A stretch of DNA of 64,000 nucleotides from Verrucomicrobiota bacterium (GTDB lineage: Bacteria; Verrucomicrobiota; Verrucomicrobiia; Chthoniobacterales; SZAS-18). Location of the stretch: positions 5,618-69,617 of the forward strand of contig JAFEGM010000032.1 of assembly GCA_018240025.1 (NCBI GenBank), read 5' to 3'. The position numbers and the translations under genes were made by a program. Below the pieces are notes generated by a model. That model was not told the DNA's origin and made no database searches. It saw nothing but the letters and a program-made list of their open reading frames with translations. Each line of letters starts with the position of its first letter. The stretch's first letter is position 1. Below are positions 10,933 through 29,284 of the stretch, piece after piece.

Positions 10933-11047
10933 TGAGAAGCTTCCGAGCCCCTGTTCGGTGGATCGAAGAAAATTGAATTCATTTTTGAGGGCAACTACAG
11001 CCCCTCGAAGTCGACCGGTTCGTCGCACCGCGTTACCCGCAGGTAGC

Positions 11048-11070
11048 GCGATTTTGAAAAGTGATACAGC
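11048..11070. promoter_or_regulatory. Possible left-end TnsB-type site
   Basis: GCGATTTTGAAAAGTGATACAGC resembles, in inverted orientation, the right-end repeat that reads GCGAAAGTTTCCAGATACTGC on the minus strand. The shared core is GCGA, a T-rich spacer and GATAC-GC. Only one site is seen, so this is weak. Confidence 0.25.
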
Positions 11071-11113
11071 TGAGCGAATTGGCCTATGCTTTGTCGCAAA
11101 GCTCTCACGCCCA

Positions 11114-11842
11114 ATGCCCGCGCGCCGCATCCGCCCCAGCCACACGAGTTTCACCGGCCAATACGCGATGAAGCGCGTCGGCGCTTCCGTGGAGTTCGAG
11201 TCCTTGATCGAGCGCAATTTCATCACGCTCATGGATTTCGATCGCGACGTGGTCGCGGTCGATGCCCAGCCGCTGACCATCGACTGGAAGGACGCGAGCG
11301 GGAAGGCGCATCGCTACGTGCCGGACTTCTTGGTCAATTTCTGCCACCCCTCCGAGCTCTACATCCCCTGGACCCCGACCAAGCTGAGGCCCTGGCTCGT
11401 GGAGGTGAAATCCAAGGAGATGCTGCAGAAGCGCTGGAGCGAATATCAGCCGAGGTTTCGGGCTGCAGCCAAGTTTGCCGCCGAGCGGAACATCCGTTTC
11501 CGCATCTTCCATGAAGGCCGCATTCCAAACATCCTTTTGCAAAACGCTCAGTGGCTGCTGCGATTCATGCACCTGCCGGTGGACTTGGCTCGGAAGACGG
11601 CGCTCATGGAGACGCTCGCTGGCGCCGATGAACTCACGGGCAATCAGCTCATCGCCGCGATCTGCAAGGATCCAATCAATCAGCGCATGCTCTTGCCGGA
11701 ACTCTGGCGCCTGATCGCCTGGCGCGTGATTTCCGTCGATTTGGCGAGTCCGGTCACCATGAATTCACCGCTTTGGATCGAACAGTGGAGCGCTGGCATC
11801 CCTTACGCCGAGGAGCAACCCGACGATGATGAACTCAACTGA
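11114..11842 (+). CDS. tnsA: TnsA-like transposon endonuclease
   Basis: 242 residues (Tn7 TnsA is 273). It makes the 5'-strand cuts at transposon ends and works with TnsB for cut-and-paste movement. The restriction-endonuclease fold residues are visible: FESLIER (E29), RYVPDFLV (D71) and LVEVKSK (E97, K99), followed by the C-terminal helical domain. The open frame extends 52 codons upstream of this ATG, but that part is low-complexity. The degenerate copy at 28658 begins matching at codon 8, consistent with a start here. Its TGA overlaps the tnsB start by 17 bp. Confidence 0.9.
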   Translation: MPARRIRPSHTSFTGQYAMKRVGASVEFESLIERNFITLMDFDRDVVAVDAQPLTIDWKDASGKAHRYVPDFLVNFCHPSELYIPWTPTKLRPWLVEVKSKEMLQKRWSEYQPRFRAAAKFAAERNIRFRIFHEGRIPNILLQNAQWLLRFMHLPVDLARKTALMETLAGADELTGNQLIAAICKDPINQRMLLPELWRLIAWRVISVDLASPVTMNSPLWIEQWSAGIPYAEEQPDDDELN

Positions 11843-13712
11843 GATTGACCTCTACCCGGGGGCCGTCGTGACGCACAAGGGGCGACGCTGCCGAATCAAG
11901 CTGGAGCTCGACCTACGCCAAGTGCTGTTGGAGCCGCTGGATGATCCTGGCGAGCCGTTCAGAGCTGACATTTGCGATCTGCGCCCCGGCGTGGAGACGC
12001 GCGCGGACGAGCAGAAGAGGGCAGAGGATGTTGCTTCATTCGCTGGCGAACCCCTCGCCATCGCCCAGGCGCGAATGGCGATCATTCTGCCGTTGTTAAA
12101 GGGCGGCCCCCGTTCGTTGGCCGAGATCGCCAAGGAACATAATGTTGATTGTTCCACCATCTATCGATGGCTTGCCACTTATCGAAAGAAGAGGCGGCTC
12201 TCCGCATTGATACCGCGCTACGCAGAGCGCGGACACCCAGGTGATCGTCGGCTCAACGCCGACACTGAGGCTGAGATCGAAACGACAATTAAGGATGTAT
12301 ATATGACGGCGGAAAGGCCGTCGATTTCAAAAACGGCGAAAACAGCGGCGGACGCCTGCAAGGCGAAGGGTTACCCGATACCCAGCCTGACGGCGGTGCG
12401 CGCCCGTATTCTAGCGAAGGACCCGAGACGATTGGCTGAGGCGCGCGACGGCGCCAATGCGGCCATGAAACTGGATTCTTCCGGCAAGTCGCTTCCCGGC
12501 GCTGAGCACCCTTGGGCGATCGTCATGATGGATCACACGCCGCTGGACCTCGCCATCGTCTCCCGGGACACGCGTCTGCCGATTGGCCGGGTCTACGTGA
12601 CGATTGCGGCTTGCGCCTACACCCGCATCTGCCTGGGCATCTACCTCTCACTCGATCCACCGAGCGCTAATTCGGTCGGCATGTGCCTGGCTCGCGCCAT
12701 GCTGCCCAAAGAGCAGTGGCTCGCCCACCTTGGCATTCCGGGTGATCTGCCGGTTTGGGGAAAGCCGGAAGTACTTTTGGTCGACAACGCAAAGGAGTTT
12801 CGAAGCAAAATGCTGCGGCGGGCCTGCGAGGAGTTTGGGATCACCCTGCAACATCGTCGCGTCCGGAAGCCCAAGGATGGCCAGCGTGTCGAGCGGATGT
12901 TCCTGACCATTGCGCACGAAGTCCATACCCTGCCGGGCACCACGTTCAGCAATTCTGAGGATCGCGGCGAATACGACTCCGAGAAGAACGCGGTCATGAC
13001 GCTCGACGAGCTCGAGCGCTACCTGGTCGATTGGATCGTGAACATCTATCACCAGACGCCGCATGCCGGCCTCAATGGCCGTCGCCCGATCGACGTTTGG
13101 AACGACGAGTCGCTGCGCTTCTCACGCGAGACCGGACTCGGGCTGCCTCCCCGCCCGGTCGACGAGCACGCCATTCGTCTCAGCCTACTGCCCATGGAGT
13201 TGCGGACCGTGCAGTGGTACGGCGTGTCCTGGGATGGCATCCAATATTGGAGCGAAGATATTCGGCGCTGGATCGACGCGCGCGAGCCAGACAGCCGGAA
13301 GCGTCGGCGGAAGTTCATCGTCCGGCGTGACCCGGACCGGATCGATCGGATCTACTTCTATGATCCCAAACTCAAGAAGCATGTCGAAGCCCCCTACAGG
13401 GACGCGACCAGGCCGCCGATCAGTCTTTGGGAGCTAAGGGTGGTGCAGCGGCACCTGCACGCGCAGAACAAGAAGAGGGTCGATGAAGCTGCGCTTTTTG
13501 CTGCACGCGAGCGGTTGCGAGCCAGTGTTGTCCAAGCGACCGAGGAGACCAAGCGCACGCGTCGGGAACGGGAGCAGGAAGAACGGCGTCGTGAGCAAGC
13601 CGAGCGGCGAGCGAAAGGCAAGCCCACCCCGCCGCCAAAAGCCCGGCAACTCGACAACCAAAAACCCGAGGGACAAGTGGACTATGAACCGTTTGATGAC
13701 GTAGAAAACTGA
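11826..13712 (+). CDS. tnsB: TnsB-like DDE transposase
   Basis: 628 residues. It binds transposon ends and joins 3' ends to target DNA (Mu/TnsB/retroviral integrase family). A helix-turn-helix near 98-120 (LAEIAKEHNVDCSTIYRW) and a second DNA-binding segment precede the catalytic core. DDE residues are D236 (MMDHTP), D320 (LLVDNAKEF) and E356 (GQRVERMF). The Mu-type beta barrel follows, then a charged coiled-coil-like stretch and an acidic tail ending DYEPFDDVEN. The tail is what TnsB homologues use to contact TnsC; the same role is inferred here. It starts at tandem ATG codons (11826, 11829) inside the end of tnsA and stops just before tnsC. Confidence 0.95.
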   Translation: MMNSTEIDLYPGAVVTHKGRRCRIKLELDLRQVLLEPLDDPGEPFRADICDLRPGVETRADEQKRAEDVASFAGEPLAIAQARMAIILPLLKGGPRSLAEIAKEHNVDCSTIYRWLATYRKKRRLSALIPRYAERGHPGDRRLNADTEAEIETTIKDVYMTAERPSISKTAKTAADACKAKGYPIPSLTAVRARILAKDPRRLAEARDGANAAMKLDSSGKSLPGAEHPWAIVMMDHTPLDLAIVSRDTRLPIGRVYVTIAACAYTRICLGIYLSLDPPSANSVGMCLARAMLPKEQWLAHLGIPGDLPVWGKPEVLLVDNAKEFRSKMLRRACEEFGITLQHRRVRKPKDGQRVERMFLTIAHEVHTLPGTTFSNSEDRGEYDSEKNAVMTLDELERYLVDWIVNIYHQTPHAGLNGRRPIDVWNDESLRFSRETGLGLPPRPVDEHAIRLSLLPMELRTVQWYGVSWDGIQYWSEDIRRWIDAREPDSRKRRRKFIVRRDPDRIDRIYFYDPKLKKHVEAPYRDATRPPISLWELRVVQRHLHAQNKKRVDEAALFAARERLRASVVQATEETKRTRREREQEERRREQAERRAKGKPTPPPKARQLDNQKPEGQVDYEPFDDVEN

Positions 13713-13713
13713 T

Positions 13714-14577
13714 ATGGATCACTTAAACGAACAAGCGATTCGAGACCTCGATCTCCCGATGGCTGACCGAGTCAACAAGATCAATTCGCAAATCTGGATC
13801 GGCTATCCGCGCGCGCAGCAGATCAACGCCCGGCTCGAGGATCTTTTGGTTCATCCGCAGGTAGCACGCATGCCCTGCATGCTGCTCTACGGCGACTCCA
13901 ATGTCGGCAAGACCCGTCTCATCCGCCACTTCGCGGTGAAGAAGGTTCGATCCACCGATGAGGACGAGACCCCGACCTTGCCTGTCTTCATGACGCTCGC
14001 GCCTTCCAAGCCTGACGAGCACGAGCTTTACTGCGAATGTTTGCGTCAGCTCAACAGTCCGCACCGGCCCAGTGCCAGCGCCGGCGCTTTGCGCGACCAG
14101 CTCTGCTCTTTGCTCAAGGATTTGCAGACCCGGATGTTCGTCATCGACGAGATCCACAACATGGTCGCGGGCGCTCCCGTCAAGCAGCGCATCTTCCTGG
14201 CCGCACTAAAATCGATGAGCAACAAGCTGCAGATCCCGATTGTGGCCGTCGGTACGACTGACGCTTTCAACGCATTCTCGATCGACTCGCAGATTTCGAG
14301 CCGCTTCGAGCCCGTGGCTTTGCCACGCTGGACCGATGGCGTCGATTTCCGACGCCTGCTGGCCACGTTCGTCAAAGCCACCCCGCTGCGCGAGCGCTCC
14401 CTGCTGTCCTCCGATGACGTGGCGGCGAAGCTCCTTAAGATGAGCGAGGGTCTGCTCGGAGAATTGGCTGAAGTCATTCGGCGATCGGCGATCGCCGAGA
14501 TCAAGGCGGGCCGTGAGTGTATCACGATGGAGACCCTCACGGGACTCGACTGGACTCCACCCAGCGAGCGCAGATAG
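13714..14577 (+). CDS. tnsC: TnsC/TniB-like AAA+ ATPase
   Basis: 287 residues. This is the ATP-dependent regulator that links target selection to the transposase. Walker A is GDSNVGKT (60-67), Walker B MFVIDE (141-146) and sensor-1 VAVGTTDAF, all in the expected order for TniB/TnsC ATPases. It is close in size to TniB and shorter than Tn7 TnsC (555), so it is the compact type. The ATG follows the tnsB stop after one base and precedes tniQ by 20 bp, making a tight operon. Confidence 0.93.
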   Translation: MDHLNEQAIRDLDLPMADRVNKINSQIWIGYPRAQQINARLEDLLVHPQVARMPCMLLYGDSNVGKTRLIRHFAVKKVRSTDEDETPTLPVFMTLAPSKPDEHELYCECLRQLNSPHRPSASAGALRDQLCSLLKDLQTRMFVIDEIHNMVAGAPVKQRIFLAALKSMSNKLQIPIVAVGTTDAFNAFSIDSQISSRFEPVALPRWTDGVDFRRLLATFVKATPLRERSLLSSDDVAAKLLKMSEGLLGELAEVIRRSAIAEIKAGRECITMETLTGLDWTPPSERR

Positions 14578-14597
14578 ACTGACGCGCATCGTTCTCG

Positions 14598-16103
14598 ATG
14601 CGACGCCGCCTGCCGATCCCCCTCAAGCCATACCCCGAGGAACTGATCTCCTCATGGATACTTCGGCTGGCGGACGCCCATCATGTCGGTCCTCGGACGT
14701 TCGGGCGGCACGTGCTCGGGCGGACCTTCGAGTTCAATCGCGACTGGGACAGCGAGCCTGGAGCAGAAATGATTCGCGCCTTGGCTCAGGCGACCGGGCA
14801 CGAAGAAGGCGTGCTACGGCAGGGGCACTCGCTGTTGGCTTGGGAAGGCCTGCTCTTCGACAGCGCCTCGGCGACTCATTCAACGCGTTGGGTCCTGCCG
14901 CGGGGAATTATCGGCGCACGTCGGCCGCATCAGCAATTCTGCCCGCTCTGCCTAATGGACGCGCCGTTTTACCGCCGGCATTGGCGGCTTTCGCTCTTTG
15001 CCGTCTGCCCGACTCACCGCGTGCAGCTCTGCGTCTCGTGTCCGCAGTGTTCTTCGGCCCTCGAATTCCTTCGGTGCGCCGCCGCCCTGGGACCACGCTC
15101 GCTGCATAGGTGCTACAGCTGCGGCTTTGATCTGCGGTGCACCGAACCGCTGGAAGCGCCCGAGCGCGACGTCCGCATCGCTCGTGAGCTCGGAGGAATT
15201 CTCTGCGGTGAGATCACTGCTCGACCCCTCGAGTTGGGAGCCAGGGAGTTCTTCTTCACGCTGTCGCAACTCAGTGCGCGGCTGCTCAGCCGCGGCAGAA
15301 AGATGCAGCTGTGGCGGCGTCTCGTTTCGCAGCTGGCTGGCTGCATCGTGCCGCAGGCCTGCTCGTTTCGAGCGCCAGTGAACATGGACGCGATGTATCC
15401 CCCGATCGGAAGAATGGCGATCTTGCGCGGCGCGATGTGGCTCCTGGGTGACTGGCCCAATCGATTTTACCTCATGCTCAAGGGCGGAGGTATCGACTTC
15501 AGTGACGTCTTTCCTCAGCCCTTTCTCTACGCGCCGGCGGTGGTTGCAGCCTCGCGGTGGCCGGCTGGGCCGCCGGCGCAGCGCGAGACATCGGCCGGTC
15601 GAAAATGGATTGCGCGACTCAACGAATTCCTCCTCTCCCGACGTGTAGACTGGTCCCCATCAAAGATGCCAAGGCTGCTACGACGGCTGCGGGCAGCCGG
15701 CTTCTTCGCACCGCGAACAGCCCCCAGCCAAATCGAGCGCTCGATCCGGCGACGCATCGAGGCGTTGAGGCACGCTGGTCGCGACTACCGCAACGCGAAC
15801 GTCCGCAAGGCCGAGCGAAGCGGCGAGGAATGGAGCCGGCTGCTGCTGCGTGCGAGACCATATCGGAAGATTCACTGCACGTCGGCCGAGATTCTGCGAC
15901 GAGGTATTCGCCTGCTCTGTGCTGATCGCTTTTTGAGCGCGCAGGACCTGGGCGCCTTGCTTCATCGCAGCCCCGAGGCGCTTCGCGCCGCGCACCTCAG
16001 TCCTATGCTGGCGTTAGGCCAACTGGAGGTGCTTCACGCGAAGCGAAATCGCGAAGGCTACCAAGCGCACCCCCAGCAAGCCTATCGGAGCGCGCCGACT
16101 TGA
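14598..16103 (+). CDS. tniQ: TniQ/TnsD-like target-site selector
   Basis: 501 residues, the size of TnsD/TniQ proteins that recognise a fixed attachment site. The N-terminal TniQ motif is PEELISSWILRLAD. Two zinc-binding clusters follow: CPLC (115-118) with CPTH (137-140), and CPQC (148-151) with CYSC (172-175). The C-terminal half is Arg-rich and helical, fitting DNA binding, with helix-turn-helix-like pieces near 455-475. Because the element family sits in comM (see 29058-29284), the simplest inference is that this protein targets comM, but the direct neighbour of this copy's right end is a tnsA fragment, not comM. Confidence 0.9.
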   Translation: MRRRLPIPLKPYPEELISSWILRLADAHHVGPRTFGRHVLGRTFEFNRDWDSEPGAEMIRALAQATGHEEGVLRQGHSLLAWEGLLFDSASATHSTRWVLPRGIIGARRPHQQFCPLCLMDAPFYRRHWRLSLFAVCPTHRVQLCVSCPQCSSALEFLRCAAALGPRSLHRCYSCGFDLRCTEPLEAPERDVRIARELGGILCGEITARPLELGAREFFFTLSQLSARLLSRGRKMQLWRRLVSQLAGCIVPQACSFRAPVNMDAMYPPIGRMAILRGAMWLLGDWPNRFYLMLKGGGIDFSDVFPQPFLYAPAVVAASRWPAGPPAQRETSAGRKWIARLNEFLLSRRVDWSPSKMPRLLRRLRAAGFFAPRTAPSQIERSIRRRIEALRHAGRDYRNANVRKAERSGEEWSRLLLRARPYRKIHCTSAEILRRGIRLLCADRFLSAQDLGALLHRSPEALRAAHLSPMLALGQLEVLHAKRNREGYQAHPQQAYRSAPT

Positions 16104-17946: not shown

Positions 17947-17966
17947 CCCTGTCAGTTTTGACAGGG
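17947..17966. promoter_or_regulatory. Perfect inverted repeat covering the methyltransferase ribosome-binding site
   Basis: CCCTGTCA (17947-17954), loop GTTT, TGACAGGG (17959-17966). The 3' arm contains the only candidate Shine-Dalgarno (CAGGG) for the ATG at 17973. As RNA it would hide the ribosome-binding site; as DNA it is a good operator. Either would limit methyltransferase synthesis. Confidence 0.55.
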
Positions 17967-17972
17967 TGAAGC

Positions 17973-19715
17973 ATGCGTTTCCCTGGCGGTAAGAACCAAG
18001 TCGTCAAGCGTCTGATCAATCTGGTTCCGCCCCATGATCGATACGTGGAGGCATTCTTGGGCAGCGGGCCCATTCTCCGTCGCAAGGTGCTTGCGAAGGA
18101 GGACATTGGTATCGATATGTCGGACGCCGTCATCCAAGCGTTTGGAGTGCGTGCGGGCGTCCGACTAGTCTGCGGAGACGCCCTGGAGGTTCTGCCCACG
18201 CTTGGACTGCAGGAGCGTGATCTGGTCTACTGCGACCCACCCTATCTGCGCGCGACTCGCCGCTCTAAACGACGCCTTTACAAATACGATCTGGGAGAAG
18301 CCGGGCATGAGGCCCTGATCGACCTCGTGCGGTCGCTGCGGTGCCAGGTCATGATTTCTGGCTATCCCAGCGCGCTGTATGCGAGCGCGCTCGCCGATTG
18401 GCGGCAACTGCAATTTGGTGGCACCTCACATCGCGGCCGCACCGTGGAATGTGTTTGGTTGAATTTTGAGCCCGGGTTGCTGCACGACCCCTCGGTTCTT
18501 GGCGAGGATTGGTCGACCCGGCTAGCCTTCCGCCGGCGGCGGCAGCGCTGGTGCGAGCGCTTCGAATCCCTGGGTTTGCCGTTTCAGCAGTCGATCCTGC
18601 TGGCGCTTTCGCACTCGTTTCACAAGCGGCTGACTCCAGCGCAGCGCTCCACGTTCGCGCTGCAGCTTCCTCTCAAAGAAGAGATCTCCCATGTGCGTCC
18701 CGATCATCGGGCACCTGCGGTCGCCCGAGCGAAACGGAACACCTCTGTAGTTCGGCCGACGGTCATCGATCTCTTCGCCGGCGCCGGATTTTTCGGGCAC
18801 GCTTTCGCCGCAGAAGGATTTCGTGTCGAAACCTCGTTTGAGGCGGACGCAGCAGCGTCTGAAGTCAATGCGCTCAATTCCCGCGCGGAAGTCCGGCTCT
18901 GCGATCTACGGGACGTGCGCCCCTTCGGACGGGCAGACGTCATCATCGCAGGACCTCCCTGCCAAGGTTTCTCCTCGTTGGGGCCGCGCCTGAAGCGCGA
19001 TCCTCGCAACAACCTCTGCCTGCTCGTGCCCAAATGGGCTGAGGTAGTCCGGCCAAAGCTCGTGGTCGTCGAAAATGTCCCCCAATTCTTGCTGAGCGAA
19101 CCCTGGAAAATCATGGCCAGCGAGTTCCGCACCTTGGGATTCGAATGTGCTCATTGGGTCCTGAACGCCAAGCACTACGGAGTGGCTCAGAATCGCAAAC
19201 GCTCGATTACCGTGTTTGCGCGGGGACTACTGCCGGACATTTCGGCTGAGCCGAAGGAACTCGGCCGAACAGTCCGCGACGCCTTTGCGGGCTTGCCGGG
19301 CTTTCCCGACCGCTCCGCGTTTCATTTCACTTTGCCTCAGTCGGAAGCCACATTGCGACGAATCAGGCTTGTGCCGGCCGGCGGTGATCTGCGCGACGTG
19401 TTCGCTATCGATCCTGAGCTGACTCCTCCCTCATGGCGGAGAGCCAAGGACAAGGTCGGTGCAATCTGGGGCCGATTGCCGTGGGACGGCCATAGCAACA
19501 CCATCCGCACGGGGTTCATTCACCCTTCCCGCGGCAGGTTTCTTCATCCGGAGGAAGATCGTCCCATTTCATTCCGTGAGGCGGCCCGGCTGCAAAGCGT
19601 TCCGGACGAGTTCCAGTTTCAAGGCTTTGCCGAGCACGTTGCCCGGCACATCGGAAACGGTGTTCCCATTGGTCTCGGGCGCATGATCGCCCGAGCGGTG
19701 GCGGCCGCCCTTTAG
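17973..19715 (+). CDS. Fused adenine-N6 (D12 class) and cytosine-C5 DNA methyltransferase
   Basis: 580 residues with two complete-looking methyltransferase domains. The N-terminal domain (about 1-240) is D12/Dam class: FPGGK (3-7), EAFLGSG as the AdoMet motif (26-32) and catalytic DPPY (88-91). The C-terminal domain (about 262-580) is a C5-cytosine enzyme: DLFAGAGFFG (266-275), GPPCQGFS with nucleophile C330, ENV (367-369), QNRKR (406-410) and HIGNGVPIGLG near the end. The target-recognition region of the C5 half is short (about 410-520). It should methylate both A and C, presumably in one or two sites. It ends 11 bp from the convergent GHKL gene. Both halves have all key residues, so this is a functional fusion, not a frameshift artefact. 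Confidence 0.92.
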   Translation: MRFPGGKNQVVKRLINLVPPHDRYVEAFLGSGPILRRKVLAKEDIGIDMSDAVIQAFGVRAGVRLVCGDALEVLPTLGLQERDLVYCDPPYLRATRRSKRRLYKYDLGEAGHEALIDLVRSLRCQVMISGYPSALYASALADWRQLQFGGTSHRGRTVECVWLNFEPGLLHDPSVLGEDWSTRLAFRRRRQRWCERFESLGLPFQQSILLALSHSFHKRLTPAQRSTFALQLPLKEEISHVRPDHRAPAVARAKRNTSVVRPTVIDLFAGAGFFGHAFAAEGFRVETSFEADAAASEVNALNSRAEVRLCDLRDVRPFGRADVIIAGPPCQGFSSLGPRLKRDPRNNLCLLVPKWAEVVRPKLVVVENVPQFLLSEPWKIMASEFRTLGFECAHWVLNAKHYGVAQNRKRSITVFARGLLPDISAEPKELGRTVRDAFAGLPGFPDRSAFHFTLPQSEATLRRIRLVPAGGDLRDVFAIDPELTPPSWRRAKDKVGAIWGRLPWDGHSNTIRTGFIHPSRGRFLHPEEDRPISFREAARLQSVPDEFQFQGFAEHVARHIGNGVPIGLGRMIARAVAAAL

Positions 19716-19726
19716 GGTCGCGTGAC

Positions 19727-22024
19727 CTACGGCGCACCGGCCGAAGCGCCGCCCGCGCGGCGATAAACTTCCAGCAGTTCGCGGTGAGCAGCCCTGGTCC
19801 GATCGAGAACCTCCAAAATATCCAATACCTGCCAAGGAGTGGTCGGATGCATATCTTCGGCAATCCTACGCTTAAGACGAACAACTTTCTCGCCCTGTTT
19901 GGTCAGCTCTTTTGAACCGACCAGGATTCCCTCGACGCGGAAGCCCTCGCCCACGTTGAGTTTGAGCCACTCGCGCGCATCTCCCATGTAATCGGTGAGT
20001 TGGTCCAAATGATCGGAGTCGAGCGGAAGATTCGGGGCCTTGAACTCGATGATGACAAATCGCTTCAGCGAACCGTTGCCGATCAGAAATGTCAGGTCGG
20101 GACGCTTGGCCTGATCCATCGTGGCAGGGGCATGGACGTCGATCTCGAGGTGTTTGGCCAGGCGGCCGGACAATTCCTTCTCCGTGACTTCCGAACTCAA
20201 GAATTCGAAAAACGTCGGATCCAACAACCACGCGTTGTTCTTGAAGAGTGAGTGCAACGGTTTTTCATTTTTTGGCGCCCTGAAATCCACTTGGTCGGCA
20301 ATCTTGGCGAGCGCCTCGATGGCCTTCAGGCGCCCGTGGACGATGGAGAGGAAGTCATCGAACTCGAGTTTCGTCAGGCGTGTGATCTCAGCGATTACCG
20401 ATGGCAGATCCGGCGTATCTGCTTTGGCCAGCTCGTAGAGCGACGAGATGATCTGGCCGCTGCCAAGACCGCTGATGACATTAGGAAGAACGGACTGATA
20501 AAATTCACTATCCAGCACGTTGGGGTCTTTGCCCGCCAGCACCTTGGCGATCTGCCACGCGGTTTTTTCCCGATGCTTGGGCAGGTGCCCGGAATTGATT
20601 GCGTCCTGGGTGAACTGGTGATTTTTGAGTTCGTCCTCGAGTTTTTCGGCTAGAAGATCGGCATACCTTCCCACCGCGCGCGACATCTCGTCGGTCAAGA
20701 ATTGCCGCAGCCGGCTCAGCAGTGGAGTCTCCCAGCGTAGCGTCTGCCGATCCGTCGAGATGTAGTCCGTGGACAGTTCATCGAGAAAGTCCGCGACGAC
20801 GACGCCTTCCAGGTAGCTCGTGTATTTGAAGCCATGGGTGTTCGTGCTGAGGTCGAGCAAATCGGGCACCGAGGCCAAGCGGTGATGGGCATACACCCGC
20901 ACGCCGCGCTGCTTGGCCGGCAGCTGACCCTTCTCTCCGCGAAAACGAAAACGGTAGCTGAATGGGATCGAGGGGAGGAATTCGTTGCCCTCGATCGTGT
21001 GCGTGACCAACTCGTCGACTCCCACACCTTCCACCGGAGGATGGGCATAGGCGTAGTTGCCTTTCATGGTCTCGACGGCGACCACGTCGATCGAGGTGTT
21101 GATCGTGATCTTGAAGTCTTTGGGCGAGATTCCGAAAAAATTCTCGGCTAGCGAGTGCGATAGATTGTGCACAACGCTACCTTTCACGCCCTCGTAGACC
21201 AGCCTGTTGAGAATGATCCGGGTGCCGCGGGTGGCAATGCCTCCACCGTCCTCCAGACGCTCGGCGACCACCGGGACGCTGTGATCTACGGAAATCGGCG
21301 TGTCGCTGCCTGCAGCAGGTTCGTTCGGGGTGATCTCGGGTGCCGATGCACCGGGCGATGCCGCTTCAGCGTTTGACGCAGCTGATGGGGCTGATGGTGC
21401 CGCGGGCTTGCCGGCTGTGGAGGCGGGCGAAGGGGACGCCAAGAGTTTGTCCAGATCCAGCACGATCCGGGTCGCATGAGACTCGCCAGCCACCCGCGTG
21501 ATGACCTCGATCCGTCTGGCGATGCCGAAACCTGCCAGCTTTCCCAACCCTTTCCGTCCCATGATGGGTCTGGCCTTTTCCGCTGTGCGAACCTTCTCTT
21601 GGCCCTTGCGCCGCCTCCGGCCGACGACGAGGAACTTGTCTTGGAGATCGTCGCGGCTCATCCCGCTTCCCGTGTCGTGGACCTCGACCGTGATCGAATC
21701 GGGGAGTGCGCGCTCATCGAGCGGTTTGATCGCTTCGAGCCGGGCCATCGCCTTGTCGTATTCCGCGGTGTTGCCGACACGCTTGGCGGCCTCGGCCGCT
21801 TGCGCGGCGTCCTTTTTCTCTCGCCTAAAATTGGTTTTTTCGTGTTCTAGCGCTTGGTCGATCGCGTTCTGATTGAACTTGATCTCCACGCTGTCCGCAT
21901 CGGCGTCATAGGCGTTGGCGACAAACTCCACCAGGGCCTTCGCGACGGAGGTGTAGAGGTTGACCCCCAGATCCTCGAGCACGTGAGGAGCGAAGGTGAA
22001 GTTCAAAGTGTCGGGTCTGTCCAT
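19727..22024 (-). CDS. GHKL-type ATPase with C-terminal nuclease-like domain (cargo)
   Basis: 765 residues from the chosen ATG. The N-terminal GHKL ATPase shows ALVEFVANAYDADAD (N box), HDTGSGMSRDDL (G1) and GRKGLGKLAGFGIA (G2), interrupted by a charged insertion after the N box and an Ala/Pro-rich linker near 210-260. The middle is helical. The C-terminal domain reads LHSLFKNNAWLLDP ... RPDLTFLIGNG ... FVIIEFKAPN, a PD-(D/E)XK-type nuclease pattern (PD ... EFK) resembling the DUF4263/Shedu C-domain; that match is by eye. GHKL proteins related to MutL/MORC are known beside restriction-modification genes, and this one converges on a methyltransferase. Longer starts exist at 22078 (ATG) and 22105 (TTG). 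Confidence 0.85.
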   Translation of the reverse strand: MDRPDTLNFTFAPHVLEDLGVNLYTSVAKALVEFVANAYDADADSVEIKFNQNAIDQALEHEKTNFRREKKDAAQAAEAAKRVGNTAEYDKAMARLEAIKPLDERALPDSITVEVHDTGSGMSRDDLQDKFLVVGRRRRKGQEKVRTAEKARPIMGRKGLGKLAGFGIARRIEVITRVAGESHATRIVLDLDKLLASPSPASTAGKPAAPSAPSAASNAEAASPGASAPEITPNEPAAGSDTPISVDHSVPVVAERLEDGGGIATRGTRIILNRLVYEGVKGSVVHNLSHSLAENFFGISPKDFKITINTSIDVVAVETMKGNYAYAHPPVEGVGVDELVTHTIEGNEFLPSIPFSYRFRFRGEKGQLPAKQRGVRVYAHHRLASVPDLLDLSTNTHGFKYTSYLEGVVVADFLDELSTDYISTDRQTLRWETPLLSRLRQFLTDEMSRAVGRYADLLAEKLEDELKNHQFTQDAINSGHLPKHREKTAWQIAKVLAGKDPNVLDSEFYQSVLPNVISGLGSGQIISSLYELAKADTPDLPSVIAEITRLTKLEFDDFLSIVHGRLKAIEALAKIADQVDFRAPKNEKPLHSLFKNNAWLLDPTFFEFLSSEVTEKELSGRLAKHLEIDVHAPATMDQAKRPDLTFLIGNGSLKRFVIIEFKAPNLPLDSDHLDQLTDYMGDAREWLKLNVGEGFRVEGILVGSKELTKQGEKVVRLKRRIAEDMHPTTPWQVLDILEVLDRTRAAHRELLEVYRRAGGASAGAP

Positions 22025-22206
22025 GGAGGGATGCCAGTATCGGGTAACCTCAGACGCGCCCACGAGAGGGACGGACATCGGCGCGCTGTCCAAGCGACCG
22101 ATCAATCGTACCGCCGGACGGGCTTCTTTAGGCAGGGCTGGAGGCGCTGGAAAGCCTTTTCTTGCGGGGCACAGACCGCAGAACCTCAGGGTCTATCGAT
22201 GATATT

Positions 22207-23022
22207 CTACGATCTAACACGATACTTGATTCGGTATTCATCGAAGGTGGAGTAGTTCTTGATGCCCTTGCTCTTGTTGATGCTTCCAAGTTGAGTGCGA
22301 TCAATTCGCTCCTGCAGCATCTCGCAGAGCTCCGCGAAGTGCTCGATGTTGATGAGTTCCCATTTGTCGACTCCGAACCTCTTCTCGATGTTCACGTAAA
22401 TCACCGAGTGTTTGAATCCCACGCGCCCTCGCTGCTTGGGGGCGAATGAATTGTAGCGCTTAATCAGGTGCTTGATGTAGTTGCGCTCGGCCAAGTGGCT
22501 TCCAATAGCCTGCGCAGGCGCTTCGACCGGCCTCCGCCCTTTGCTCGGTGCGGCATTGTGAATGGTCGCGTGGGCTGCTTCTAAACGGCCGATGTAGATC
22601 TGGCTAGCCTGGAGGTAGATGTCCCGATAGCTAATCAACAGGTTCGTGATGTTCTTTCCGTCCTGGACCGAGAGATCGTTTCTGGCCGGCTCTTGATGCG
22701 CCTGCTTCATCTCCCGGAGACGCTCGACGGTGTAAAGCTTCGGCTCTGAATCGATTACCTTGCTGTGCCTTCCACAGAGGAGGATGAGGTTGTCGAAGTC
22801 GTGGCGTTGTTCGTCGGTCTGCTTTGAATCGTAACGTGGGCCGCCCTTGCTGCGAGCGCAGATGTGACAGATGATGCCCGTGACCGTACCGGTTAGCTCA
22901 ACGATCGGCAGGTCACAGGCAGGAAATGCACAACGGTTGTGTGAGACCGCATACAGTCTTTTTACCGTGGTGCGAGAGGGTTCCGAGGGCTGAGTGGCAG
23001 CGCCTGCTTTAGGTGTGGGCAT
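22207..23022 (-). CDS. HNH endonuclease family protein (cargo)
   Basis: 271 residues. The N-terminal HNH/zinc domain has RCAFPAC (C31, C36), ICHICARSKGG (H53, C55), HDFDNLILLC (N78, C83) and GRHSKVID (H86), giving the His-Asn-His set plus zinc ligands. The remaining 180 residues are helical and basic with no recognised motif, perhaps a target or partner domain. DNA here is clearly more AT-rich than the surroundings, a sign of separate origin. It is transcribed towards the GHKL gene (about 180-bp gap) and is divergent from the gene pair at 23114 (91 bp). A restriction or defence role is inferred. Confidence 0.85.
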   Translation of the reverse strand: MPTPKAGAATQPSEPSRTTVKRLYAVSHNRCAFPACDLPIVELTGTVTGIICHICARSKGGPRYDSKQTDEQRHDFDNLILLCGRHSKVIDSEPKLYTVERLREMKQAHQEPARNDLSVQDGKNITNLLISYRDIYLQASQIYIGRLEAAHATIHNAAPSKGRRPVEAPAQAIGSHLAERNYIKHLIKRYNSFAPKQRGRVGFKHSVIYVNIEKRFGVDKWELINIEHFAELCEMLQERIDRTQLGSINKSKGIKNYSTFDEYRIKYRVRS

Positions 23023-23113: not shown

Positions 23114-24415
23114 ATGGCCGACTCTCCTCTGACACCGTCGCTTCTAGCCGCACGCTGCGCTGAAATTCAGGAATGTTCGACTAACGTCGAGGTCGGGGAG
23201 TTCGAACGCATCCCAGAGATTGGCATGGCGCTGAGGATGGCCTTGCACATCCAAGGCTGTCCGGCGGTAGATTTTGAAAGCTTGAAGCTGGTTTCCATCT
23301 ACCTGCTCAAGTTCCCGCGCTTGGTCGTAGAACGGATTGTGCGGCTACTGGCCGAGGTTGAATTCGTTCGCCTGCAGACTGAGGGCCAGACCATCAAGAC
23401 GGTCGTTCCGACGGTACCTTATTACAACCAGATCTACTCGGACCTCGGAGCGTACGCAGCGGACCGCAAGTTCACCGAAGTCGAGCAACTAGCGCTCGCC
23501 ATGACCGAGCGTTTGGCGAAGAGTCCCGAAGAAAAGGAAAGGCTATTTGCTGCGCTGGGCGGGGAGCGCGCGGCGCTGGAAGGCTTGGTGGAAATCGGTA
23601 AGCAAGGGGGCTTCCTCTGGCAAGAGCGTGCGCGGGGCAGGGTCATCCTAGGCAACCCGTCCTATTTTTCCGAGAACTGGGACGTGTTTGCCGACCATGT
23701 TGCGGGTCTCGGTTCTGCCAGCGTCGGTCGTGTGCTGGATCTAGTCCGCAGATACCAAGGTTGGCCACTCGCGCTCATCGAGAGGGATTTGAAGATCGGC
23801 GACCGCGAGGTGAGCGCGGAAGACGCCAGACTCCTTCGTCAGCTGGCTGAATTTGGGGCGGTCAAACCACCCTGCATCCAGACCAAGCACGCCGGCGAGA
23901 ACCAGTTCATCTTCACGCCAGTGCCGTTCGGCGTGAAACTCAATCCGATCCGGCACGACATCTTCGAGCGGGCGCTGGCCATCGTTTCGGCAGTTCGTCA
24001 GGGCCAACTCTTGCCCGAAGCGTTTCGAATCCGCAGCCCATTAGCCGTTTTGAGCAAAATGCGCTCCCACAAGCGGCTGGGCAAAGCGACCCAGGAATTT
24101 ACCCAGCAATACCGCAAGCTCGTACACATGCGCATCGCCAAGCTTGTGCCTGCAGGGAACGACTATTTCGAGTTTCACTTGATCGACACGGAGACCAACA
24201 TCGAGGCGTTGAACATTGCTTACGATTTGGTTGCCACCGGCGAGAGCCAAACTTTGGGAGTGGACACGGACGCCATTAACGCCCTGCAGATGGACAGTCA
24301 GTATCTGGAATCGCGCATCAGCCGGGCTGAAATGGCCAGGAACAAGAACACCGTCCCGCTGTCGCGCGAGAACCAGGAGCTGGCTGACCAACTTCTGCTC
24401 AGGCTCGCCCCATGA
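23114..24415 (+). CDS. Unknown protein, first gene of a two-gene cargo unit
   Basis: 433 residues, no signal peptide or membrane helices. The N-terminal 130 residues look like a winged-helix arrangement (SIYLLKFPRLVVERIVRLLAE, then EFVRL and a beta pair), with a second similar stretch around residues 250-330. The C-terminus is helical and acidic. I recognise no family. Its stop overlaps the next ATG (ATGA, 24412-24415), so the two proteins are made together, probably as partners. Being in the cargo of a Tn7-like element, next to an HNH and a GHKL nuclease, a defence role is a reasonable guess only. Confidence 0.75.
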   Translation: MADSPLTPSLLAARCAEIQECSTNVEVGEFERIPEIGMALRMALHIQGCPAVDFESLKLVSIYLLKFPRLVVERIVRLLAEVEFVRLQTEGQTIKTVVPTVPYYNQIYSDLGAYAADRKFTEVEQLALAMTERLAKSPEEKERLFAALGGERAALEGLVEIGKQGGFLWQERARGRVILGNPSYFSENWDVFADHVAGLGSASVGRVLDLVRRYQGWPLALIERDLKIGDREVSAEDARLLRQLAEFGAVKPPCIQTKHAGENQFIFTPVPFGVKLNPIRHDIFERALAIVSAVRQGQLLPEAFRIRSPLAVLSKMRSHKRLGKATQEFTQQYRKLVHMRIAKLVPAGNDYFEFHLIDTETNIEALNIAYDLVATGESQTLGVDTDAINALQMDSQYLESRISRAEMARNKNTVPLSRENQELADQLLLRLAP

Positions 24416-25725
24416 AGGCCAAAGGAAAAAAAACACCGGCTCCGGCGCAGTCTCCGGGGATGCTCGATCGCGCCCAAAAACAAAAAGTTCTCCAATACTC
24501 CATCGCCCGACGGTGGTTGCCTCAGCTCGAACTCGATGTGGCACCCTTGGTGGCAACCGGTGAAGCGCAGACGCTCATCACCGATGTCGACGTCTTCGCC
24601 TCCGTGCCCGATGAATTCGAGGGCTACCGGCAGGTCCTTTTCGATTGCAAATCGGGTTCGCGTGAATCGGCGATCGGGCGCGCGCTCTGGCTGCGCGGCT
24701 TGATGCATCGCCTTGGAGCTGCCCGCGGCATTTGCATCCTCAAGGGAACGATCGGCATGGACCACCGGTTGGCGGCCGCGGGGTTCGACGTCACGCTCGT
24801 TCAAGAGGATGAGTTGGCCGCCTTCGCCACGGCCACCGGCGGTGCCGGCCCGGTCGACGGCAGCTATCTCGCCAAGCTCGAGAACTGGGATCGGCAAAAC
24901 GCTTTGGCTAAGCAAAGCGAGGCGATGGCCGATCTCGTCCTTTTTTCACGCGCTCGGTTTTGGGGGGCTGGTTCGGCCTCGCTGGCGAGTCGGCAGTGTA
25001 TCGCGCTGCTTCTGCGGCACCGGGGCGATCTCGATCCGGCGAAACCGCTGCACCTGGGAATTTTCGGCGACATTTGCGCGCTTTTCCTGCACGCACTCGC
25101 AAGGGTCGCCGTAAGCGTTTTCTACAGCTACATCCACCCTCGGACGCAGGAAGATTTGGCAGACAGCGTCCGTTATCTGCTCTACGGCGGCCGCGAGAAC
25201 TACAACCTGCTCAACTCGCTGCGCCAGCGGATTGCTCCCACGGCCGAAGGGACTTCCGAGGACTTGACCGTTCCGCAGTGGGACAAGTTCCTCAACCTGC
25301 TGCGGCAATCGCTCAACAGCCCCCGTGACGCACTGCGTAGCGCGCTTGTCGCCCGGGAGGTGGCCTGGAGCTATTTCGACGCTGGAAGGGCTCAGCCGCT
25401 GACCTTTGCGGCGGAACTGGCCAAGGAAGCGCCGCATGCCGCCAAGATCTGCCTTCTGGCTGCGGAATACCTGAGTCGGGCGGCTCGGTTGTCTCCGGAG
25501 TTTGGGAAGACTTTCTCGGAAGCCTTCGTCGCACTGGTTCCAGCTGTGGGGGCGCTACCCGCGGCCGTTTCGCTGCCTGCAGCGGTCGTCGCTGCAGCTG
25601 CACCGGCCCATGAAGCAGCTGCTGTTGCCGATCCCAATCCGTCAGCCGCTGCGCTGGTTGCGCCGCCGCCTGAGACTCCTGGGGAGGGTCCGAAAGAACC
25701 CGTGCTGCCCGGCTTTGGGACTTAG
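24412..25725 (+). CDS. PD-(D/E)XK nuclease-like protein, second gene of the two-gene unit
   Basis: 437 residues. The N-terminal domain carries TDVDVFA (D58, D60) followed after about 17 residues by VLFDCKSG (D78, K80), the D...DxK spacing of restriction-endonuclease folds, and then GRALWLRGLMHRLGAARGICIL, a helix-strand as in that fold. The middle (about 150-340) is helical. The C-terminal 60 residues are Ala/Pro-rich and look disordered, ending EPVLPGFGT. It overlaps the upstream gene by 4 bp. The nuclease call rests on motif spacing alone. No known defence system with this pair comes to mind. Confidence 0.75.
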   Translation: MKAKGKKTPAPAQSPGMLDRAQKQKVLQYSIARRWLPQLELDVAPLVATGEAQTLITDVDVFASVPDEFEGYRQVLFDCKSGSRESAIGRALWLRGLMHRLGAARGICILKGTIGMDHRLAAAGFDVTLVQEDELAAFATATGGAGPVDGSYLAKLENWDRQNALAKQSEAMADLVLFSRARFWGAGSASLASRQCIALLLRHRGDLDPAKPLHLGIFGDICALFLHALARVAVSVFYSYIHPRTQEDLADSVRYLLYGGRENYNLLNSLRQRIAPTAEGTSEDLTVPQWDKFLNLLRQSLNSPRDALRSALVAREVAWSYFDAGRAQPLTFAAELAKEAPHAAKICLLAAEYLSRAARLSPEFGKTFSEAFVALVPAVGALPAAVSLPAAVVAAAAPAHEAAAVADPNPSAAALVAPPPETPGEGPKEPVLPGFGT

Positions 25726-26394: not shown

Positions 26395-26889
26395 ATGAAT
26401 CTTCCCGAAACGGACTCGCTAGCCGCCAAGGTGCGACTCGCAGAAGAGTTTCTGGATCCGCTTCTTCACGTCGAGGGGTTCATCGGCAAGACGCCCGTGG
26501 GCGTTGCGACCGGGGTTTATTTCGCGGCCGAGCGCTCGATGCTGCTCAGCGACCTGCAGGTCTACGACTTCTCGCAGAAGCCATGGACGCTTCGGCGCTT
26601 CTTCGATCTGGGCAGCCGCCGGAGGCTGCGTGGCTTCGGGATCGGCTCCCGGTTGCTCGACAGGTTCCTCGAAATGGCCAAGCAGCTGGGCGTGATCGCG
26701 GTTCATGGGTCGGTGACACATGGCGACCTCTTGAAGACTCCCCGGCTCATCGAATTCTACGCCAACCGTGGCTTTCGGAGGCTGCCAGCCGGGCCCGATG
26801 AACTTCTCGGCGCCATCTGCCGGGTCGAGTGGAACCTGGGGAGCGCACTCAGCCAGCCGCTTCCGGCGGCTGCTGCAGCAGCTGTTTGA
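26395..26889 (+). CDS. GNAT-family acetyltransferase-like protein (cargo)
   Basis: 164 residues. The acetyl-CoA motif A is RRRLRGFGIGSRLLDRFL (R-x-x-G-x-G/A form), preceded by a beta strand (MLLSDLQVYDF) and followed by VIAVHGSV and EFYANRGFRRL, the motif B strand-helix. The substrate is unknown. The gene ends inside the 3' end of the convergent TnsE-like gene (41-bp overlap), so it is the innermost cargo gene at the right side. A role as toxin or modifier is possible but unsupported. Confidence 0.75.
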   Translation: MNLPETDSLAAKVRLAEEFLDPLLHVEGFIGKTPVGVATGVYFAAERSMLLSDLQVYDFSQKPWTLRRFFDLGSRRRLRGFGIGSRLLDRFLEMAKQLGVIAVHGSVTHGDLLKTPRLIEFYANRGFRRLPAGPDELLGAICRVEWNLGSALSQPLPAAAAAAV

Positions 26890-28573
26890 AGGCCCGCTCG
26901 AGCTTCAGTGCGTGAATTCGGACCGCCTTGAATTGCGGATCCGCCTGCAGAGGCTTGAACAGGTGGCGAACGGTCCGGATCTTCCAGCGTTTGCCGCCGG
27001 CGGCGCCGACAATCTGAGCGCGGAATCCAGCCTCCTGCAGCAGTTGGACCAATTCGCCAGTCGCTGCGCCCGCATCGACGCGCAGAGCGGCGATGGATGC
27101 GGTGCGCGCACGCACGAGTTTCTTGGGATGTTTGACCTCGCAGACGAAACCCAGCACCTCACCTCGTTGCACTTGGGCGACCAACACCGTTGGGAGATCG
27201 GCGTCATCAGATTCCTGCGGGCGGGAAAGTTCGCCCAGATAGCCGCAATCGGGGCGCGAGACTTGGAATCCAAGCGTTCCCAATTCGGCCAGGACTCCGA
27301 CGAAAAACGTGAACCCCTCCATGTTGCCGATCGTCGTCAGTTCGTCGTCCAATCCTTGCGGGAGGGTGAACTGCAGTTTGAGCGGAGGGACTGCGTCCAT
27401 TCCGCTCGACGCAGCTCCGATACCAACTTGGTCTTGCAGCGAGACATCCGGCCTGGGCCTTGCAGGCGGTTCGGCATTCGCCCGCGGGCGTCGCTTCGGC
27501 CACTCGATTTCAAGGCCGGGCAGCAGCTCCGTCGCCCCAGGAAGACGCCATTCCGTCGGCAACTGCCATTTGCGAGGCGGCTGATCACCCAGCCTGGCCC
27601 CGGTGTTGGAGGTTGACCCGAAGAGCGGCGGATTTCGTCCGCTGCGCAGGTGCTCGATGTAATCGTAGATCGACTCAGGGCTGGCCCCGGGGTTTTCTCG
27701 CTCGAGTTCGAGGCGCCTGAGTCCCTCAGGCTGGTAGTCGCACGAATCGATGGCTTGGACGAGGAAGCGGTCGGCCTCCATTTGTCCGCGGCACTTGATC
27801 GTGCAGGGCCGGCTAAACGGCAGCCGCACCTTGAGGTGCGACTCGGTTTTCCCGGCTGGAGCTTCGATATTTGTCGCTCCGGCTTGCCGGCTTACTGACC
27901 GTTCGATCTCCATCGCGGCCTCGCGGGCCTTTTTCTCGAGGAACCACCAGACTAATGGCCGACACCCTTCGCTATCGACCCACTTGCTCAAACAGAGTCT
28001 GAGCACCCCATCCTTGAACTCCGAGCGACGAGGACCAAATAGCTCGTTTTCAAGCCAAAACCTCCTGGCCCAGGGAAGCCCGTCGATTCTCGAAAACAAC
28101 GCCATCAGGACCTCAGGCGACGGCGCGTACAGCGATGTCAGCAGGGTCGGGCACGCGGCGACCACCTGCACCGGCTTGCCGTCAAGAATGCCTTCAACCG
28201 TTGAGAACCACCCACCGCGGTAAACTTCCTTGGGAAGCAGATGGTGCCGCAAAAGGAGCCGGCTGATTCCCTTGTCGTCAGCCCTGACGATCTTCGAGCT
28301 GCCGGTAAGGGTGATGGTTCTCTGGTTGCTTAGGTGTCTTTGCCCGCGGTATTCGCCCTCAACCCAGAGGGAACCTATGCGGAATGCTCCCAGGGCGGCT
28401 ACGGGAACGCTGATCTTCTCGAATCTCGTGGCAAGAAAACCTGCCGGCGACGTCAGGAATACCTCAATCAGATGGTCTGTGGAGTTGTCGCGAAGCTTCA
28501 GGCAACCGATCGCGCTCACCATCAAGTGGCCCTGGGGGACCGGACGCCCGTTGAGAATGTGCGCGAGCTTCAT
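26849..28573 (-). CDS. TnsE-like transposition protein at the right transposon end
   Basis: 574 residues (Tn7 TnsE is 538). The C-terminal 150 residues have a pattern like the TnsE C-domain: LVAQVQRGEVLGFVCEVKHP resembles the V-x-R-N-G-x-EFVLLEV strand pair of TnsE, followed by RARTASIAALRVD and two helices. The N-terminal region is beta-rich, the middle (about 300-390) Pro/Arg-rich and probably flexible. It starts 84 bp from the transposon terminus and reads inward; the relic element has the same start at the same distance, showing that this gene-end arrangement is a fixed part of the element. In Tn7, TnsE directs insertion to replicating DNA. The match is by eye, so family assignment is moderate. 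Confidence 0.6.
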   Translation of the reverse strand: MKLAHILNGRPVPQGHLMVSAIGCLKLRDNSTDHLIEVFLTSPAGFLATRFEKISVPVAALGAFRIGSLWVEGEYRGQRHLSNQRTITLTGSSKIVRADDKGISRLLLRHHLLPKEVYRGGWFSTVEGILDGKPVQVVAACPTLLTSLYAPSPEVLMALFSRIDGLPWARRFWLENELFGPRRSEFKDGVLRLCLSKWVDSEGCRPLVWWFLEKKAREAAMEIERSVSRQAGATNIEAPAGKTESHLKVRLPFSRPCTIKCRGQMEADRFLVQAIDSCDYQPEGLRRLELERENPGASPESIYDYIEHLRSGRNPPLFGSTSNTGARLGDQPPRKWQLPTEWRLPGATELLPGLEIEWPKRRPRANAEPPARPRPDVSLQDQVGIGAASSGMDAVPPLKLQFTLPQGLDDELTTIGNMEGFTFFVGVLAELGTLGFQVSRPDCGYLGELSRPQESDDADLPTVLVAQVQRGEVLGFVCEVKHPKKLVRARTASIAALRVDAGAATGELVQLLQEAGFRAQIVGAAGGKRWKIRTVRHLFKPLQADPQFKAVRIHALKLERAFKQLLQQPPEAAG

Positions 28574-28657
28574 AGCTCGCTTCCAGAGTGTTTCGCAGTA
28601 TCTAAAAACGATTCATGCAGTATCTGGAAACTTTCGCGCCTTCCAAGAGTTGTCGCA
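28574..28657. repeat. Transposon right end, copy 1 (intact element)
   Basis: 84 bp between the tnsE-like start and the terminus. Read from the outside on the minus strand it begins TGCGACAACTCTTGG and contains two similar sites, GAAAGTTTCCAGATACTGC and GTTTTTAGATACTGC, plus an outer pair TGCGACAACTCTTGG / TGCGAAACACTCTGG. These are candidate TnsB-binding sites. The same segment recurs 400 bp to the right with about 90% identity. Confidence 0.8.
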
Positions 28658-28889
28658 CCAGTCACACGAGTTTTACCGGCCAATACGCGATGAAGCGCGT
28701 CGGCGTGTCCGTGGAGTTCGAGTCGTTGATCGAGCGAAATTTCATCACGCTCATGGATTTCGACCGCGACGTGGTCGCGGTCGATGCGCAGCCGCTGACC
28801 ATTGATTGGAAGGACGCGAGCGGCAAGGCGCACCGCTACACCCCGGACTTCTTGGTCAATTTCTGCTATCCCACCGATCTCTACATCCC
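28658..28889 (+). pseudogene. tnsA fragment of a second, related Tn7-like element
   Basis: 232 bp matching tnsA at 11136-11367 in the same orientation, codons 8 to about 84. The encoded peptide is nearly the same (for example FESLIERNFITLMDFDRD is identical) but the DNA differs at many third positions, so it is a diverged relative, not a recent copy. It lacks a start and the C-terminal half including the ExK motif. Its left edge is exactly the terminus of the intact element. Confidence 0.85.
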
Positions 28890-28973
28890 GCGCAACTTTA
28901 CACAGCCGATCGCGCTCACCATCCAGTGGCCTCGGGGCACGGGGCGCCCGTCGAGAATGTGCGCGAGTTTCAT
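28890..28973 (-). pseudogene. tnsE-like 5' fragment of the second element
   Basis: First 28 codons of a second TnsE-like gene, starting at an ATG at 28971-28973. The peptide begins MKLAHILDGRPVPRGHW, against MKLAHILNGRPVPQGHL in the intact gene. It joins directly to the tnsA fragment, so everything between tnsA and tnsE of that element has been deleted. Confidence 0.8.
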
Positions 28974-29057
28974 GGCTCGCGTCCAGAGTGTTTCGCATTA
29001 TCTAAAAACGATCCTCGCAGTATCTGGAAACTTTCGCGTTTTCCAAGAGTTGTCGCA
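28974..29057. repeat. Transposon right end, copy 2 (relic element, next to comM)
   Basis: 84 bp matching copy 1 with a few substitutions and ending in the same TTGTCGCA. The next base is comM coding sequence, which fixes the insertion point of the older element in comM. Confidence 0.8.
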
Positions 29058-29284
29058 AGGTCGGCCGGCGCCAGGTTCACCAGGGTGTATCCATCCGGCC
29101 ACCGCAGGCCGGAGTTGCGGATCGCCGTCGTCACCCGGTCGCGGCTTTCGCGTACCGCCGCATCGGGCAGACCGACGACGACGATGCTATTCTTGTTCTC
29201 GTTGGAGGGGGCGTTATTGACCTCGACCTCGACCGAAACGGCCTCCACCCCCACGACAGCGGTCGAAAAGACACGCGCAAACAT
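29058..29284 (-). pseudogene. comM: comM (yifB) 5' fragment, interrupted by the Tn7-like element
   Basis: Codons 1 to about 75 of the Mg-chelatase-like ATPase ComM/YifB, which acts as a branch-migration helicase in natural transformation. The N-terminus MFARVFSTAVVGVEA, the motif IVVVGLPDAAVRESRDR and VNLAPADL are family hallmarks. The frame runs straight into the transposon end, and Walker motifs and the rest (about 430 residues) are absent from the window. comM is a recorded target of Tn7-like elements of the Tn6022/AbaR type. The N-terminal insert NNAPSNENKN is longer than in E. coli YifB. Confidence 0.85.

What the first reader, a model, noticed from the sequence alone, without database searches (positions are those of the whole stretch)
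17973..19715. Single protein carrying a D12-class adenine methyltransferase and a C5-cytosine methyltransferase
Both halves keep their catalytic motifs (FPGGK/DPPY and GPPCQGFS/ENV/QNRKR/GNG) in one 580-residue frame. m6A plus m5C in one chain is rare. It is in transposon cargo, converging on a GHKL nuclease, so it may protect against a dual-modification-sensing nuclease. Motifs are seen directly; function is inference.
Basis: partly seen in the sequence, partly recalled or inferred. Interest (0 to 1): 0.75.

Follow-up and report, generated by a model that had tools for sequence, protein, structure and literature searches.

The report
Fused adenine-cytosine methyltransferase in transposon restriction system
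A mobile DNA element carries a restriction (DNA-cutting) defence whose protective enzyme, normally one cytosine methyltransferase, here has a second, phage-type adenine methyltransferase fused to its front; this union was seen in no other genome we searched, although the general idea of one protein marking both bases is already known.

Summary
One open frame, 17973-19715 (+), encodes 580 aa: a compact D12 (Dam-like) adenine MTase (about aa 1-220), a linker, and a C5-cytosine MTase (about aa 260-580), all catalytic motifs intact. The convergent gene (19727-22105, -) is a MORC-like GHKL ATPase plus PD-(D/E)XK nuclease, a divergent relative of the BbrUII/HgiDII restriction enzymes. The cytosine half plus this nuclease is an old restriction-modification pair: the five closest stand-alone cytosine relatives all sit beside a homologous GHKL nuclease and have no D12 gene in the DNA I could read. 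The adenine half belongs to a different pool, stand-alone ~220-240 aa enzymes of prophages and plasmids. So m5C alone probably protects against the nuclease, and the adenine domain is an added activity, not half of a dual-modification code. No other protein with both halves was found. The locus is cargo of a Tn7-like element inserted in comM (5-bp target duplication found). Precedent: M.Esp3I/M.BsmBI are already m6A-m5C fusions, but with a gamma-class m6A half and Type IIS partners. New variant of a known kind. Site specificity is unknown; activity is inferred, not shown.

The parts
17973..19715 (+). Fused DNA methyltransferase, 580 aa
   Evidence: single open frame; PF02086 + PF00145; TIGR00675 dcm 9.5e-31 above its cut-off
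17973..18630 (+). N-terminal compact D12 (Dam-like) adenine MTase domain, about aa 1-219, no target-recognition insert between motif I and DPPY
   Evidence: stand-alone homologues 35-42% identity; AlphaFold model pLDDT 88; EcoDam Z 17.3, T4Dam 16.7, DpnM 16.6
18631..18753 (+). Linker, about aa 220-260, between the two MTase domains
   Evidence: outside the homology of both halves; coding-like codon-position GC
18754..19712 (+). C-terminal C5-cytosine MTase domain, about aa 261-580
   Evidence: stand-alone homologues L050, L051, L052, L023 at 42-45%; motifs IV, VI, VIII, X intact
19727..22105 (-). Convergent partner nuclease: MORC/Hsp90-like GHKL ATPase plus C-terminal PD-(D/E)XK-type nuclease (invariant R668, D670, E687; K689 in the close relatives), 792 aa
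   Evidence: NF050001 restrict_BbrUII 5.4e-64, 216.9 bits; conserved residues; model pLDDT 77, MORC3 Z 20.4 over aa 37-487
22207..23022 (-). HNH nuclease gene just upstream of and on the same strand as the GHKL nuclease; possible accessory
   Evidence: PADLOC PDC-M68A 6.7e-28; homologue near the related pair in L051
10958..16103 (+). Tn7-like transposition genes: TnsA-like, TnsB/TniA-like, TnsC/TniB, TniQ
   Evidence: PF08722/PF08721, Mu-transpos_C, TniB 4.5e-65, TniQ 7.1e-24
28992..29056 (.). Right end region of the Tn7-like element, with a 19-nt repeat shared with its other end on contig C99
   Evidence: TCGCATTATCTAAAAACGA at both ends; GACCT at both junctions
29057..29284 (-). First ~76 codons of the interrupted target gene comM; the rest lies on contig C99

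Best explanation
This is the modification enzyme of a mobile restriction-modification system of the GHKL-nuclease kind (relatives: BbrUII/HgiDII). The cytosine half methylates the recognition site of the convergent GHKL/PD-(D/E)XK nuclease and is enough to protect host DNA; the nuclease uses ATP to act on unmodified incoming DNA. The compact D12 domain fused in front is a second, independent adenine methyltransferase taken from the phage/plasmid pool; it adds m6A at its own, probably short or relaxed, site, giving the element's and host's DNA a second mark that can shield it from other restriction systems. Shown here: the fused frame, intact motifs, the conserved cytosine-MTase/GHKL pair, the separate origin of the D12 half, the Tn7-like carrier. 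Inferred: both activities, which half protects against the nuclease, and the purpose of the m6A mark.
For: The five closest stand-alone cytosine relatives (L002/L050, L027/L051, L028/L052, L030/L053, L023) each sit beside a GHKL homologue of 29-47% identity; a search of viral contigs that started from the GHKL protein found a cytosine MTase beside it in 16 of 18 loci. No D12 ORF lies within 3 kb of the cytosine MTase in any GHKL locus except the window's own. D12 relatives are stand-alone and mobile: plasmids and 80 viral contigs. Catalytic residues are conserved in both halves. The cytosine target-recognition region is alignable with relatives lacking D12. The modelled D12 fold matches Dam enzymes.
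Against: No activity, site or methylome is known for any part. Identity to relatives is only about 45% and 27-42% in the target-recognition region, so the cytosine site may differ. Only one example of the fusion exists, so conservation of both activities cannot be tested. Absence of D12 beside related pairs was judged only within the fetched flanks (about 7 kb at most, less at contig ends; L053 is a 4.8-kb contig). Fusion could imply that both marks serve the same nuclease, as in M.Esp3I.
Confidence: 0.6

Rival explanations
1. Both halves modify the same site: the nuclease recognises an asymmetric or altered sequence and the fused enzyme puts m6A on one strand and m5C on the other, as in the Type IIS Esp3I/BsmBI systems. 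Both marks are needed for protection.
For: Precedent for m6A-m5C fusions protecting asymmetric sites (PMC3874165; Eco31I as two separate enzymes, PMC4659465). Fusion couples the two activities 1:1. GTCGAC, the site of the HgiDII relatives, contains both A and C.
Against: Homologous nucleases are paired with a cytosine MTase alone. The D12 family is not otherwise linked to this nuclease. The adenine half is D12/Dam-like, not gamma-class.
Confidence: 0.2
2. The D12 domain no longer methylates usefully; it serves as a DNA-binding or stabilising module of the cytosine MTase, or is a neutral passenger.
For: It lacks the target-recognition insert of Dam enzymes (143 residues of EcoDam 2g1p align); only one fusion is known.
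Against: All MTase motifs and family-invariant residues (P19, H21, E26, G30, D88, P89, Y91, H112, W143, W162, R183) are kept; stand-alone relatives are equally compact.
Confidence: 0.12
3. Assembly or sequencing error: two neighbouring genes joined by a false indel or lost stop.
For: Only one assembly, a draft genome (121 contigs, 4.24% contamination). A +1-frame stop lies at 18631, about where stand-alone D12 proteins end. An in-frame GTG at 18693 with a purine-rich stretch upstream could start the cytosine MTase (seen). Compact D12 and cytosine MTase genes are sometimes adjacent in phages.
Against: Frame-0 homology reaches codon ~216-219, so the error would have to fall in a few bases; codon-position GC is uninterrupted; no internal stop.
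Confidence: 0.05

Closest known systems
BbrUII/HgiDII-type restriction-modification systems (NCBIfam NF050001; M.HgiDII methylates GTCGAC, PMC5867850)
   Same: GHKL-family nuclease beside a C5-cytosine MTase
   Different: nuclease scores 216.9 bits against a cut-off of 550, so not a member of the curated family; the MTase here carries an extra adenine domain; site unknown
M.Esp3I / M.BsmBI (PMC3874165)
   Same: one polypeptide with an m6A and an m5C MTase inside a restriction-modification system
   Different: their m6A half is gamma-class and they protect asymmetric Type IIS sites; here it is a compact D12 enzyme and the nuclease is GHKL-type
M12.MhoVII of Mycoplasma hominis (PMC12898733)
   Same: two MTases fused, one of them D12-like, protecting against a linked nuclease
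   Different: both halves make m6A, on GATG/CATC
Compact stand-alone D12 adenine methylases of prophages and plasmids (e.g. L009, L024, L026, L160-L218)
   Same: 35-42% identity over the whole N-terminal half, same compact layout
   Different: about 220-300 aa, not fused, no linked GHKL nuclease
paraMORC GHKL proteins in restriction-modification operons (PMC2292703)
   Same: GHKL + S5 ATPase next to DNA methylases, nucleases, sometimes HNH genes
   Different: most of the operons described there also carry helicases; I found no fused m6A-m5C enzyme mentioned in the passages read

Membership tests
BbrUII/HgiDII family restriction enzyme (NF050001) | score at or above the curated cut-off (550 bits) | tested here: not met
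   216.9 bits, E 5.4e-64: a relative, not a member
BbrUII/HgiDII family restriction enzyme (NF050001) | GHKL ATPase with intact ATP-binding motifs plus a nuclease domain | tested here: met
   invariant E60, N64, D144, G146, G148, MGRKGxGK; RxDLxFL...ExK; model MORC3 Z 20.4 over aa 37-487; strand-strand-helix-strand at 671-731
BbrUII/HgiDII family restriction enzyme (NF050001) | adjacent C5-cytosine MTase | tested here: met
   11 nt between the convergent stops; same pairing in relatives
BbrUII/HgiDII family restriction enzyme (NF050001) | cleaves GTCGAC | not testable with these tools
   needs biochemistry
C5-cytosine DNA MTase (PF00145/TIGR00675) | motifs I, IV (PCQ), VI (ENV), VIII (QxRxR), X (GN) and curated score | tested here: met
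   149.8 bits vs 22; 107.6 vs 100.65; motifs in alignment
D12-class adenine MTase (PF02086) | score over the cut-off, GGK, motif I and DPPY | tested here: met
   42.7 bits vs 22; motifs
Dam subfamily (TIGR00571) | curated score 114.85 and target-recognition insert between motifs I and IV | tested here: not met
   31.7 bits; about 56 residues between motif I and DPPY; 143 residues align to EcoDam 14-270
M.Esp3I-type m6A-m5C fusion | gamma-class m6A half | tested here: not met
   D12 class
M.Esp3I-type m6A-m5C fusion | asymmetric Type IIS site | not testable with these tools
   no methylome
Tn7-like transposon | TnsA, TnsB, TnsC, TniQ genes; ends with shared repeats; 5-bp target duplication | tested here: met
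   GACCT and a shared 19-nt repeat at both comM junctions; the element spans two contigs

The most novel reading that the evidence does not exclude
A single modification enzyme with two unlinked specificities, where one half immunises the host against its own GHKL nuclease and the other writes a broad m6A mark that shields the transposon from other restriction systems in new hosts: defence and counter-defence in one polypeptide carried by a Tn7-like element.
Probability: 0.3. Interest if true: 0.65.

Novelty: new variant of a known kind. Interest (0 to 1): 0.42.

Why it matters
If both halves work, it shows how a restriction-modification system on a transposon can gain a second, independent DNA mark by gene fusion, and it offers one small protein for writing m6A and m5C together. 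The GHKL nuclease family itself has little biochemistry that I could find, and this locus gives a compact pair to test how its ATPase and nuclease work.

Tried and rejected
Searched for other fusions: 38 relatives, 213 genomes of the order and 387 of the phylum with the whole protein; GTDB contig pattern scan (two D12-only hits); phages and plasmids by tblastn, no record covering 80%; viral contigs with both halves and the GHKL protein. In 261 loci 155 ORFs matched the D12 profile and 179 the cytosine profile, and only copies of the window's own ORF matched both. Long D12 ORFs (454 aa or more) among the listed hits in 268 genomes: none has cytosine-MTase motifs; some hold two D12 stretches. 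A mixed alignment of all homologues to the whole fusion misaligned the two Rossmann domains and was not used for folding. The hairpin over the ribosome-binding site is weak (z -1.8) and not claimed. The weak SduA_C match of the nuclease (E 0.031) was not taken as Shedu membership.

Full report
Observation. The ORF at 17973-19715 is open for 580 codons from an ATG. Pfam finds a D12 adenine MTase and a C5-cytosine MTase, and NCBIfam scores the second half above its Dcm superfamily cut-off. There is no sign of a frame break in codon-position GC or in frame-0 homology, although a +1-frame stop at 18631 lies where stand-alone D12 proteins end, so a resequencing check is worthwhile.

Cytosine half. 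Its nearest relatives (42-45% identity) are stand-alone C5-MTases. Each of the five closest has a GHKL-nuclease homologue next to it: L050, L051, L052, L053 and the Rhizobium daejeonense plasmid L023, in three of the five tail to tail as here. Starting instead from the GHKL protein in viral contigs, 16 of 18 loci carry a cytosine MTase beside it. The target-recognition region is alignable with these relatives, 27-42% identity. So the cytosine MTase and the GHKL protein are an old, conserved pair.

Nuclease. The 792-aa GHKL protein hits the BbrUII/HgiDII restriction-enzyme model with E 5.4e-64, though below its curated cut-off. The GHKL motifs and three of a PD-(D/E)XK-like set (R668, D670, E687) are invariant across 19 aligned proteins; K689 is invariant in the closer set of six. 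The model (pLDDT 77) matches MORC and Hsp90/MutL ATPase modules, best MORC3 at Z 20.4 (298 residues, 3.3 A) over residues 37-487; the C-terminal part was not searched alone. M.HgiDII is a characterised m5C enzyme for GTCGAC (PMC5867850), and GHKL proteins of this sort have been placed in restriction-modification operons (PMC2292703).

Adenine half. Residues 1-219 match compact D12 enzymes on plasmids (Methylomonas L024, Xanthomonas L026), in genomes (L009, L010, L054, L055) and in 80 viral contigs. They lack the target-recognition insert of Dam: only about 56 residues separate motif I from DPPY, and the model (pLDDT 88) aligns 143 residues to EcoDam residues 14-270 with Z 17.3 at 2.3 A. A helical pair follows at residues 180-219. 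It is the only PF02086 protein found in this genome.

Uniqueness. No other ORF carrying both domains appeared in the 600-odd genomes, phages, plasmids, GTDB pattern scan or viral contigs searched, nor among the long D12 ORFs listed for 268 genomes. In several phage contigs the two kinds of gene lie side by side, for example 38 and 65 bp apart in L205 and L183, which offers a route to fusion (inference). The samples are finite and mostly from the host's phylum.

Carrier. tnsA, tnsB, tnsC and tniQ homologues lie at 10958-16103. The right end is at about 29056, followed by the first 76 codons of comM (29284-29057, minus). The next part of comM begins on contig C99 at about 5143, and the two junctions share a 5-bp GACCT and a 19-nt end repeat. 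The element therefore spans at least two contigs, and the MTase is cargo. Restriction-modification modules are the commonest defence cargo of Tn7-like elements (PMC8649781).

Mechanism. Best reading: m5C protects against the GHKL nuclease; m6A is an extra, independent mark. Main rival: both marks on one site, as in M.Esp3I, the published m6A-m5C fusion (PMC3874165). The comparative evidence favours the first because the nuclease's relatives manage with a cytosine MTase alone, but nothing here measures activity.

Verdict. A real and, in our searches, unique domain fusion in an otherwise recognisable restriction-modification system; new variant of a known kind.

Noticed in passing
window 29057-29284 and contig C99:5143-5799, C99:60107-60745: comM is split into three pieces, so a second large insertion (about 54 kb) interrupts it near codon 288 as well.
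   Followed up: partly
window 28489-29057: A decayed second copy of the 5' part of tnsA (28654-28889, 92% to 11132-11367) is flanked by two 169-nt repeats, 87% alike; probably a remnant of an earlier related element.
   Followed up: partly
window 22207-23022: HNH nuclease gene upstream of the GHKL nuclease, related to PADLOC PDC-M68A and to HNH parts of CBASS effectors; a homologue lies near the related pair in L051.
   Followed up: partly
window 17947-17966: Perfect inverted repeat CCCTGTCA-GTTT-TGACAGGG ending on the ribosome-binding site of the fused MTase; could be an operator or a translation hairpin, support is weak.
   Followed up: partly
window 23114-25725: Two adjacent unknown cargo genes (433 and 437 aa) with no confident Pfam, NCBIfam or PADLOC match.
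   Followed up: no
window 26849-28573: 574-aa cargo gene with no family match in Pfam, NCBIfam or PADLOC.
   Followed up: no
L205, L183, L228, L229, L235: Viral contigs where a compact D12 adenine MTase gene lies directly next to, or overlaps, a cytosine MTase gene.
   Followed up: no
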